NCBI GenBank assembly: GCA_016183025.1
Contig: JACPFL010000097.1
Location: forward strand, 1-33,400
Reading direction: 5' to 3'
Source of the DNA: Deltaproteobacteria bacterium
GTDB lineage: Bacteria; Desulfobacterota; JACPFL01
Length of the DNA stretch: 33,400 bases
Shown: positions 16,202 to 19,132 of the stretch, piece after piece
Layout of the letters: each line of letters opens with the position of its first letter
How positions within the stretch are numbered: the stretch's first letter is position 1
Program-made: the position numbers and the translations under genes
The notes under the pieces: model-generated
What the model saw: only the letters and a program-made list of their open reading frames with translations
Databases searched by the model: none
What the model was told of the DNA's origin: nothing

Positions 16202-16395
16202 CCGCTCCCTCCTGTGCTCCCCGCCGCCGGCTTCAGCCAGTAGTTATGCGCCCCACCACCTATGCGACGGATTTTCCACGTTAGCGCCAGGCGCTTCCCG
16301 GCTGCGGCACAGTCACGAAGATACAGGTTGATCAGGGTCTGATAGGGAATCCCACACTCCTGCGAGAGGGCCTTGAAGTACCTGATGGTCTGTTC
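16198..16395 (-). pseudogene. C-terminal remnant of a BrnA/CopG-like antitoxin
   Basis: Minus frame reads EQTIRYFKALSQECGIPYQTLINLYLRDCAAAGKRLALTWK..., like the ribbon-helix-helix-type antitoxin C-terminus (YFK.L..E.GIPYQ.LINLYLRD.), with no N-terminal half. Confidence 0.6.
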
Positions 16396-16514
16396 ACGAG
16401 GAGGTCGCTATTCCTGATCGTGGCCCACCCCATCTGGGGTACAGTCCTAACCTCGTGGCCAACGATGTCTCTCGCGAGCCGCCGGTCAACGCAATCGTCC
16501 AGGAGAACCCTCAC
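16332..16514 (-). pseudogene. Truncated DUF5615-like (PIN-like) toxin
   Basis: MRVLLDDCVDRRLARDIVGHEVRTVPQMGWATIRNSDLLV matches the usual N-terminus; then switches into unrelated sequence (the antitoxin remnant in another frame). ATGA overlap with the DUF433 gene. Confidence 0.7.
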
Positions 16515-16723
16515 GACGCAGAGGCGACCATGCGAGCTTTCGCTTCCTCAAGGAAGGCGATCACCTGTTCCCGTTTCACGGTGGGAAAGCCTTCGAGGAA
16601 ATCGTCGATTGTCTCCCCCCCCTCAAGGTAGTCGAGCAGCGTCTGCACCGGCACCCGGGTGCCGGTGAACACGGGGGTACCCCCTAGGATGTCGGGCGAG
16701 CACGTGATAATTGGCTGATTCAT
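16511..16723 (-). CDS. DUF433 family antitoxin
   Basis: MNQPIITCSPDILGGTPVFTGTRVPVQTLLDYLEGGETIDDFLEGFPTVKREQVIAFLEEAKARMVASAS; canonical DUF433. Confidence 0.9.
   Translation of the reverse strand: MNQPIITCSPDILGGTPVFTGTRVPVQTLLDYLEGGETIDDFLEGFPTVKREQVIAFLEEAKARMVASAS
16646..16667. repeat. 22-bp perfect palindrome within the DUF433 coding region
   Basis: CACCGGCACCC|GGGTGCCGGTG. Confidence 0.85.
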
Positions 16724-16774
16724 GAGAAGTAGGTTACGCCATGAAGCCTGATCCATCAAGCGGCATCTAGACAT

Positions 16775-16786
16775 TATGACTTCCGC
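16775..16786 (+). repeat. Left subterminal inverted repeat of the IS
   Basis: TATGACTTCCGC; reverse complement of the right repeat is TATGACTCCCGC (11/12). Confidence 0.75.
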
Positions 16787-16887
16787 GTGGAAAGGCTGAC
16801 CCCCGGCTCATCACGCGGGTTAGCCTAGGGAGGCCAGAGCCGCCATGTGCTCTCGGCACATTCCACACACAAGCACGGAGGTCAGCC

Positions 16888-18003
16888 ATGGACAAGTCTA
16901 GCAGAACCGTTTACGTCGGTCTCGACGTCCACAAAGACTCCATCGCCGTCGCCTACGCGCCTGAGGACCGCGGGGCCGAGGTCGTCTCCCTGGGGACGAT
17001 CGGCACGCGCCAGTGCGACCTCGACAAACTGATCCGCAAGCTCCAGTCCACGGGCGCGGCGCTCGTGTTCGGCTACGAGGCCGGCCCGTGCGGGTACTGG
17101 CTGTATCGGTACCTCACCCGGCTGGGCTTGAGCTGCCAGGTCGTTGCCCCGTCCCTGATCCCGAAGCGGGCCGGCGACCGGGTCAAGACCGACCGCCGCG
17201 ATGCGATCACGCTGGCCCGGCTCATGCGCAGCGGGGATCTCACCTCCCTCTATGTTCCCGAGATTCCCGACGAGGCCATTCGGGACTTGAGCCGCGCCCG
17301 GGAGGATGCCATGCGGGATCTCAAGGCGGCGAAGTACCGGCTGAAGGCGTTCTTGCTGCGGCAGGACCTTCGGGACGAGGGCCGGGCCAATTGGCACGCC
17401 GCTCATCTCCGCTGGCTGGCGGAGGTGGTGTGTCCGACCGCCGCCCAGCAGATCGTGTTTCAGGAGTACGTCCGCACCGTGACCGAGCGGACCGAGCGCC
17501 TGGAACGACTGGAGGGGGAGCTGCGCGAGGAGGTCAAGCGCTGGCGCCTGTCCCCGGTCGTGGAGGCGATCCAGGCCCTGCGCGGCGTCGAGCTCACGGG
17601 CGCCGTCATCGTGATCGCCGAACTTGGGGACCTCACGCGGTTCGACCCCCCGCGGCAGCTCATGCGTGACCTCGGGCTCACCCCGTCGGAGTACTCCTCC
17701 GGGGAGCGCCGGCGGCAAGGGGGCATCACCAAGGCCGGCAACACGCACGCCCGGCGGGCGCTGGTCGAAGGGGCGTGGGCCTATCGGTATCCGGCGAAGA
17801 TCAGTCGGCATCTCCAGCTCCGGCTGGAGAAGCTGCCGGTCGAGGTGCAACGGATCGGCTGGAAGGCGCAGGTGCGGCTGTGCAAGCGGTATCGGCGGCT
17901 GACGGCCCGGGGCACGCATGCGAACCAGGTCGTGGTAGCCATCGCACGGGAGATGGCGGCCTTCGCCTGGGCGATGGCCCGCGCGGTACCGCTCGCGAAC
18001 TAA
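16888..18003 (+). CDS. IS110/IS1111 family transposase (DEDD, RuvC-like plus C-terminal Tnp domain)
   Basis: [19 protein letters not shown]...[15 protein letters not shown]...[19 protein letters not shown]...[36 protein letters not shown]. Confidence 0.96.
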
Positions 18004-18051
18004 CGGAGCGGAGCGCCGGGAACAGCGGAGTTCAAACAGATTGATTGCGAT

Positions 18052-18238
18052 CTCGAGCCATCGGACGAGACGCGGCCCCGGTATCGGCGCAACCTTCGGC
18101 GACGTGACGAGGCCACGACCCCCGACCCTCGAGCGAAGCAGGCGCCGCGACGGACACCAGTCAGGTGGTACCCACCCCACGGATATCAGCATGATCAACC
18201 GTCGCCGTGACAGGCTCCGTCTCGTCCGAGGGTTCGAG
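18052..18238 (+). ncRNA. Candidate IS110/IS1111 bridge RNA (seekRNA)
   Basis: Located between the transposase stop and the right IR. 18052-18077 pairs with 18213-18238 (24 of 26 positions incl. two G.U; two 1x1 mismatches). Nested CGGCGACG (18097-18104)/CGTCGCCG (18200-18207) and hairpin GGTGG-TAC-CCACC (18164-18176). Confidence 0.6.
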
Positions 18239-18295
18239 CACCCCCCATGAAGGGAGAACATGGCCGCCGATCTTGACGTCATCGTCGACTTGACA

Positions 18296-18307
18296 GCGGG
18301 AGTCATA
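18296..18307 (-). repeat. Right subterminal inverted repeat of the IS
   Basis: GCGGGAGTCATA on +; reverse complement TATGACTCCCGC. Directly preceded by TTGACA (18290-18295). Confidence 0.75.
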
Positions 18308-18560
18308 TCAACGCTCGCTGTCAGCGGCGGCGTCCGAGCAGGGCGAAGACGCCGGCCGTTTCACCACGGTGTTAGAGGGCGTCCGTCCCTCGGTCGGTTG
18401 CATGATCGCCAGAGCAGAGATGATGTCCTCCAAGGTCACCTTGGTCATCAGGTTGAGCCCGCTGACGCTCCGTGCAACCTTCGGCGAGCGCGAGGGGGCG
18501 TGAGACCAGCGCGAGCGGGCCGACCGCCGTCAGGTTCACACGGAAGTTACAATAGACGCC

Positions 18561-18854
18561 TCATTCGACACTTGGCTCGGCAGGAAGCTGCGCGCCATGC
18601 CATACCGCGACGACCCAGACGGTCTTCCCTTCAACCCGATAGAAGAACCGATACGGAGGAATCACGACCTCTCGATACGGAAGCTCCGGGAATTCCCGAA
18701 TCAGCCGACCCGACTTCGGATACCGACTCAGCCGTCGAAGCATGCGCTCGGCCCGAAGCCGGAGCTTGCGCGCCGCCTCGGGGTTGTCGCCGTGAACGTA
18801 GGCCAGCGCCGCCAGGAACTGAAGACGGCCCGAAGGCGTGAACCGAACCCTCAC
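18561..18854 (-). CDS. RelE/ParE-family toxin
   Basis: MRVRFTPSGRLQFLAALAYVHGDNPEAARKLRLRAERMLRRLSRYPKSGRLIREFPELPYREVVIPPYRFFYRVEGKTVWVVAVWHG; ATGA overlap with the antitoxin. Confidence 0.9.
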   Translation of the reverse strand: MRVRFTPSGRLQFLAALAYVHGDNPEAARKLRLRAERMLRRLSRYPKSGRLIREFPELPYREVVIPPYRFFYRVEGKTVWVVAVWHGAQLPAEPSVE

Positions 18855-19132
18855 TTCGACGCGCGCGCGAGAAGCGCGTCGGCCTCGTCCAAGACCTTGT
18901 CCAAGTCATAGCCCTGGCCTGCAGCTATCTCCTTTTCCCCCCTGGCCAGCAGTCGCAGCAGCTGACGTTCATGCTCCGCCCTTTCGTAGGCCTCGACGCT
19001 CAGCATGACGGCTGCCGCTCTGCCTCGCTGGGTGATGACAAGTGGCTGCTTGGAGGCCCGTACCCGCTTGAGGGCCGCTGCCGCGTCCTGGCGCAAATCG
19101 GTCACGGGCATGATGTCTGGCACCTTGGGCAT
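18851..19132 (-). CDS. Phd/YefM-family antitoxin
   Basis: MPKVPDIMPVTDLRQDAAAALKRVRASKQPLVITQRGRAAAVMLSVEAYERAEHERQLLRLLARGEKEIAAG; upstream GGAGGG RBS. Confidence 0.9.
   Translation of the reverse strand: MPKVPDIMPVTDLRQDAAAALKRVRASKQPLVITQRGRAAAVMLSVEAYERAEHERQLLRLLARGEKEIAAGQGYDLDKVLDEADALLARASK

What the first reader, a model, noticed from the sequence alone, without database searches (positions are those of the whole stretch)
18052..18238. Candidate bridge RNA/seekRNA in the 3' non-coding region of the IS110/IS1111 element
Seen: the transposase stops at 18003 and the right repeat starts at 18296, leaving ~290 nt without a credible ORF. In it, 18052-18077 (CTCGAGCCATCGGACGAGACGCGGCC) pairs with 18213-18238 (GGCTCCGTCTCGTCCGAGGGTTCGAG) at 24 of 26 positions, with two single mismatches and two G.U pairs, including a 12-bp perfect core (18061-18072/18218-18229). 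Nested inside are an 8-bp stem (18097-18104/18200-18207) and hairpin 18164-18176. Knowledge: IS110-family recombinases use a structured RNA from their non-coding ends to specify donor and target; in IS1111-type members it lies downstream of the transposase. Inference: this 187-nt segment is that RNA. The internal segment GGATATCAGCATGATCAACC shares short words (ATATCA, ATCAAC) with the RE boundary CATATCAACG, but this is too short to count as guide evidence.
Basis: partly seen in the sequence, partly recalled or inferred. Interest (0 to 1): 0.85.

Follow-up and report, generated by a model that had tools for sequence, protein, structure and literature searches.

The report
Guide RNA of an integron-targeting transposon
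The hairpin is a real, evolutionarily conserved guide RNA (seekRNA/bridge RNA) of an IS1111-type insertion sequence whose relatives jump into integron attC sites; it is a new member of a system described in 2024, with one oddity: this copy's guide no longer matches the site it sits in.

Summary
In detail: 24 of 26 positions paired, 12-bp perfect core, exact coordinates. The window holds a 1541-bp IS1111-group element (16769-18309) with a transposase (16888-18003) and a structured RNA (about 18046-18244) in its 3' non-coding region. In 31 homologues the long stem and target-loop stem pair in 93.7% of cells, with two-sided changes at 25 of 27 pairs (0/500 shuffles). A covariance model of 10 relatives finds the RNA in elements not used to build it (E to 1e-21). 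Over 39 distinct guide/flank pairs each RNA fits its own flank far better than others' (0/20,000 permutations), including natural retargeting. Relatives sit in integron attC sites; one empty site was found intact. The nested 8-bp stem is not conserved. This copy has the poorest guide-to-flank match (3.5 of 8) although its transposase is intact. No expression data exist. New member of a known kind.

The parts
16769..18309 (+). IS1111-group insertion sequence (AGACATT...ATC, 7-bp left / 3-bp right extensions outside the subterminal repeats)
   Evidence: same ends in homologues; boundary fixed by the intact empty site of the Klebsiella relative L100
16776..16786 (+). left subterminal inverted repeat ATGACTTCCGC
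   Evidence: 10 of 11 complementary to 18296-18306; conserved in homologues
18296..18306 (+). right subterminal inverted repeat GCGGGAGTCAT
16888..18003 (+). DEDD transposase/recombinase, 371 aa, intact
   Evidence: Pfam PF01548 + PF02371, NF033542 257 bits over a cutoff of 140; one departure from near-invariant residues
18046..18244 (+). conserved structured RNA (seekRNA/bridge RNA); extent of the model match
   Evidence: covariance model R1; covariation
18052..18077 (+). 5' arm of the closing stem
18213..18238 (+). 3' arm of the closing stem
18086..18146 (+). target-binding domain: stem 18086-18090/18142-18146 and inner stem 18094-18098/18134-18138
   Evidence: 100% and 96% of cells paired in the close group; all six outer pairs have two-sided changes over 31 sequences
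18099..18106 (+). T-guide (pairs with top strand of right target), GCGACGTG in this copy
   Evidence: position by alignment; guide-flank match test
18125..18129 (+). B-guide (same sense as left target), ACCCT in this copy, followed by C
18148..18204 (+). donor-binding domain, stem 18148-18153/18199-18204
   Evidence: 98.3% of cells paired in the close group but nearly invariant, so little covariation support; one position unpaired in the distant group
18183..18189 (+). likely donor guide ATATCAG reading the RE|LE circle junction ATATC|AG
   Evidence: co-varies with the right-end sequence, Fisher p 8.6e-5
18290..18295 (+). outward -35 box TTGACA; with CATTAT (16772-16777) would form a promoter with 17-bp spacing in the circle
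   Evidence: sequence; TTGAC conserved in homologues
18310..18380 (-). interrupted attC-like site (minus strand: CTCTAAC ... GCGTT, completed by AGATGCC at 16762-16768)
   Evidence: hairpin of this copy weaker than in L006, L012 and L017

Best explanation
The 3' non-coding region of this IS1111-group element encodes a guide RNA. A long stem closes two domains. In the target domain one segment (T-guide, 18099-18106) pairs with the top strand right of the insertion point and a second (B-guide, 18125-18129) pairs with the bottom strand on the left. [quoted passage not shown] The DEDD recombinase bound to this RNA would form a circle with abutted ends, whose junction makes a promoter, and insert it without duplication between T and AAC of the attC core (RYYT|AACGC in element orientation). 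Shown here: anatomy, covariation, guide-target and guide-donor correspondence in the family, exact insertion point in a relative. Inferred from published experiments on relatives: RNA production, binding by the transposase, circle, chemistry. This copy's guides have drifted from its own site, so it may be stranded unless served in trans.
For: Transposase family. 3' RNA with the same fold in homologues: two-sided changes at 25 of 27 pairs, 93.7% of cells paired, 0/500 shuffles, slid controls 31-43%; close group 93.9% paired. The model finds the RNA in elements outside its training set (E 2e-21 to 5e-10). Guide versus own flank: mean 6.44 of 8 against 4.74 permuted, 0/20,000; B-guide 2.76 of 4 against 2.09, 0/20,000. 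Natural retargeting (flank/guide): L029 AACTTCC/GGAAGTT, L064 AACACCC/GGGTGTT, L083 AACGTTTT/AAAACGTT, L114 CCAT|AGTATCT/AGATACT and CCAT, L116 TTTTA|AGTGGAA/TTCCACT and TTTTA, L010 AGTCCTT/AAGGACT. Donor guide: RNA C never faces right-end T (0 of 14) while RNA T faces right-end C in 9 of 25, as G.U wobble predicts; divergent L118 has ATGAG in both places. Empty site of L100 intact at 100% in another plasmid. Published mechanism for attC-targeting ISKpn4/ISPst6 seekRNAs (PMC11187229) and for IS1111 bridge RNAs (PMC11208160).
Against: No expression or transposition data. The window copy's own T-guide matches its flank worst of all (3.5 of 8), so for this copy the guide-target link is not shown. 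Homologues are related, so permutation tests overstate independence. The donor-domain segment that should face the left end was not identified. Folding energy of the single sequence is ordinary.
Confidence: 0.93

Rival explanations
1. The stem is a chance or merely structural feature (for example a transcription terminator or an end-proximal palindrome) with no guide function.
For: Single-sequence folding energy is ordinary; high G+C makes stems common.
Against: Compensatory changes throughout the stem and target loop in 31 sequences; loops co-vary with genomic flanks and with element ends; no run of T follows the stem.
Confidence: 0.03
2. Real seekRNA family, but this copy is a stranded relic: the guides mutated after insertion and the element no longer moves by itself. 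(A refinement of the best explanation, not an alternative to it.)
For: T-guide matches its own flank at only 3.5 of 8, the lowest of 39 distinct pairs; one full copy plus one 5' fragment in the genome.
Against: Transposase has one departure from near-invariant residues against 13 in the decayed L012; ends and RNA fold are intact.
Confidence: 0.5
3. This copy's RNA has been naturally retargeted: both guides now specify T|C instead of T|A, with a cognate target of about ACCCT|CACGTCGC.
For: T-guide ends in G and the B-guide is followed by C: both changes name the same base; transposase intact.
Against: L014 also has C after its B-guide while its T-guide is unchanged; A-to-C and T-to-G changes are frequent in this copy generally (17, against 5 the other way); CCTCACGTCGC is not enriched in the genome (1 hit; reversed-pattern controls 1 and 2).
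Confidence: 0.15
4. IS110-group rather than IS1111-group element, with its RNA at the left end.
For: NCBI and Pfam names say IS110.
Against: Long subterminal repeats; 119 bp before the start codon against 306 bp after the stop; the covarying RNA is downstream.
Confidence: 0.02

Closest known systems
IS1111 elements that target attC (ISKpn4, ISPst6, ISPa25) and their seekRNAs (PMC11187229)
   Same: 3' non-coding region, top-strand match precedes bottom-strand match in the RNA, 7/3-bp extensions, insertion without duplication at one end of attC sites
   Different: reference sequences of ISKpn4/ISPst6 could not be compared directly; here in uncultivated bacteria; this copy's guide deviates from the attC consensus; a separate donor guide is indicated, which the text read of that study does not describe
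IS1111-group bridge RNAs predicted by Durrant et al. (PMC11208160; ISPa11 and others)
   Different: there by inspection of a few elements; here supported by correlation with the right end across one family
IS621 / ISCro4 recombinases (PDB 8WT6, 9T56)
   Same: same superfamily; only the C-terminal stretch aligns by sequence
   Different: IS110 group, RNA upstream of the gene, short subterminal repeats

Membership tests
IS110/IS1111 superfamily | DEDD (RuvC-like) domain plus Transposase_20 domain | tested here: met
   PF01548 and PF02371 over cutoff; NF033542
IS1111 group | subterminal inverted repeats of about 11-13 bp with 7-bp/3-bp extensions | tested here: met
   16776-16786/18296-18306, 10 of 11; extensions AGACATT and ATC
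IS1111 group | long non-coding region downstream of tnp | tested here: met
   18004-18309 against 16769-16887
seekRNA / bridge RNA | conserved structured RNA in that region | tested here: met
seekRNA / bridge RNA | segments matching top and bottom strand of the target, top-strand match first | tested here: met
   met for the family
seekRNA / bridge RNA | guide matches the flanks of this very copy | tested here: not met
   3.5 of 8 for the T-guide, 2 of 4 for the B-guide; a property of this copy, not a condition for belonging to the family
seekRNA / bridge RNA | RNA made, bound by the transposase and needed for movement | not testable with these tools
   needs experiment; published for relatives (PMC11187229)
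IS1111 elements that target attC | insertion of relatives at a fixed position of integron attC sites | tested here: met
   L100 in a class 1 integron with intact empty site elsewhere; attC-type flanks in L006, L012, L017 and many Alteromonadales
IS1111 elements that target attC | this copy lies in a genuine attC site | tested here: inconclusive
   core GTTAGATGC and CTCTAAC present, neighbouring toxin-antitoxin-like genes, but imperfect hairpin and no complete integron integrase found

The most novel reading that the evidence does not exclude
This element was caught while changing target: an intact recombinase whose two guide segments now agree on a new core (T|C instead of T|A) while it still sits in the old attC-like site. 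That would show how guide drift seeds new IS1111 target specificities.
Probability: 0.15. Interest if true: 0.55.

Novelty: new member of a known kind. Interest (0 to 1): 0.38.

Why it matters
It extends RNA-guided, attC-targeting IS1111 elements to uncultivated soil and groundwater bacteria, places the guides by covariation, and collects natural guide-flank pairs that record retargeting within one transposase family. That helps define programming rules of compact RNA-guided recombinases. It also gives evolutionary support for a separate donor guide in IS1111 RNAs. No Rfam 15 family covers this RNA at gathering score.

Tried and rejected
Rfam: nothing at gathering score, only a chance-level Guanidine-III match at E 0.59. 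The nested 8-bp stem was tested and rejected. Folding energy alone is not significant. Searches of the family and class returned only the own genome, so no closer copy and no natural empty site of the window element was found. The predicted new target CCTCACGTCGC was not enriched. Two enterobacterial plasmid elements fetched in the hope of ISKpn4 (L124, L125) gave only marginal model matches. The original IS1111-attC paper is not held. A donor-domain guide facing the left end was looked for by eye and not found.

Full report
The element. The window carries a 371-aa DEDD transposase at 16888-18003 (Pfam PF01548 and PF02371; NF033542 at 257 bits). Eighty homologues were fetched; the nearest full-length ones (81-84% aa identity) are in Candidatus Rokubacteria MAGs and one Betaproteobacteria MAG. 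Aligned ends show subterminal inverted repeats ATGACTTCCGC/GCGGGAGTCAT and common sequence from AGAC at the left to ATC or ACC at the right. The boundaries were fixed with a relative (L100) inserted between the arr-3 cassette and qacEdelta1 of a class 1 integron. Its joined flanks GTGCATCT|AACGCC match an intact record at 100% over all 89 nt in one piece. This gives a 7-bp left and 3-bp right extension and no duplication, as published for IS1111 elements (PMC11187229). The window element is thus 16769-18309, with flanks GCGGCATCT|AACGCTCG.

The observation. The stem exists exactly as described and exceeds shuffles, although the overall folding energy does not.

The RNA. Of its cells 93.9% are standard pairs, 19 pairs have changes on both sides, and 0 of 500 shuffles are as high. 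In 31 sequences including Alteromonadales, 25 of 27 pairs of the closing stem and target stem have two-sided changes and 93.7% of cells pair; slid controls give 31-43%. The structures were derived from these same alignments, which favours them over the slid controls. The donor stem is nearly invariant in the close group and has a mismatched position in many distant ones, so it rests on conservation more than on covariation. A covariance model of the ten finds the same RNA, at the same place, in elements not used to build it, some of which sit at unrelated targets (E 2e-21 for L114, 1e-13 for L118, 3e-11 for L127).

The guides. Alignment places an 8-nt T-guide right after a conserved CG and a 5-nt B-guide in the partner strand of the target domain. 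In almost all homologues the T-guide is the reverse complement of the right flank, and the B-guide resembles the left flank. For 39 distinct T-guide/flank pairs the mean score is 6.44 of 8 against 4.74 when flanks are permuted (0/20,000); for 34 distinct B-guide pairs it is 2.76 of 4 against 2.09 (0/20,000). A few distant elements were placed by hand, and relatedness was not corrected for. The strongest evidence is natural retargeting: L029, L064, L084, L083, L074, L010, L114, L116 and L121 each have altered flanks and matching altered guides. The order (top-strand match first) is that reported for IS1111 seekRNAs.

The donor guide. Over non-redundant elements, right end ATATC goes with RNA ATATC in 14 and ATACC in 0; right end ATACC goes with RNA ATACC in 16 and ATATC in 9 (Fisher p 8.6e-5, not corrected for relatedness). 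Four further ATATC elements have other letters. RNA U opposite bottom-strand G is a wobble pair, whereas RNA C opposite A is a mismatch, so the asymmetry is what pairing predicts. A divergent relative, L118, reads ATGAG in both places. Durrant et al. suggested donor-binding nucleotides in IS1111 multi-loops. The partner guide for the left end was not found.

The target. Relatives lie in attC sites: L006, L012 and L017 have good attC hairpins, and Alteromonadales copies lie in superintegron-type sites (recognised from general knowledge of attC structure). The window site reads, on the minus strand, CTCTAAC...GCGAGCGTT|AGATGCC, with a Phd/RelE-like gene pair upstream and a DUF433-like gene about 50 nt downstream (gene names by eye). 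The hairpin is imperfect, so attC here is likely, not proven. The genome has an integron-integrase-like fragment (177 bits, under the cutoff of 265, at a contig end and with one TGA) and a 5' fragment of a second copy of the element, also beside a DUF433-like gene.

The oddity. This copy's T-guide GCGACGTG matches its flank AACGCTCG with only 3.5 of 8, the lowest of all, and the B-guide fits 2 of 4. Both guides have changed at the base next to the insertion point in a way that would name T|C. Against true retargeting: L014 shares one of the changes alone, A-to-C and T-to-G substitutions are common in this copy (17 against 5 the other way), and the named site is not enriched in the genome. The transposase is well conserved. 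A stranded copy is therefore judged more likely than a retargeted one, and a consensus error of the metagenome assembly cannot be excluded.

Known or new. Mechanism and membership rest on published work on ISEc11, ISKpn4, ISPst6 and ISPa11 (PMC11187229) and on IS621 and IS1111 bridge RNAs (PMC11208160). This is a new member of a known kind, with useful natural retargeting data.

Noticed in passing
L012:1891-3433: Decayed homologue in Rokubacteria GWA2_70_23 with a strikingly one-sided substitution spectrum: 54 of 95 differences are A>C or T>G (3 the other way), with 13 changes at near-invariant transposase residues. Mutator signature or sequencing error.
   Followed up: partly
L010:127-1640: Homologue apparently retargeted away from attC: guide AAAGGACT|TA and flank TA|AGTCCTTG both changed.
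   Followed up: partly
L098:5832-6323 (G000 contig C304): Integron-integrase-like fragment (TIGR02249, 177 bits) at a contig end with an in-frame TGA: remnant or contig-end piece of an integron in this genome.
   Followed up: partly
L099:661-917 (G000 contig C305): 5' fragment of a second copy (86% identical), broken off after about 45 codons, also next to a DUF433-like gene.
   Followed up: partly
window 16332-16774 and 18580-19130, minus strand: Small toxin-antitoxin-like gene pairs (DUF433/DUF5615-like; Phd/RelE-like) on both sides of the element, as in integron cassettes; names by eye, not searched.
   Followed up: no
window 16882-18306, minus strand: 474-aa open frame antisense to the whole transposase and RNA; probably a high-G+C shadow frame.
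   Followed up: no
L100:2889-4480: Relative of this element inserted at the arr-3/qacEdelta1 boundary of a class 1 integron on a conjugative IncC plasmid that also carries blaNDM-1.
   Followed up: partly
L067, L024, L022 non-coding regions: Extra sequence inserted inside the RNA (in L067 at the T-guide, in L024 at the donor guide), possibly breaking it.
   Followed up: no
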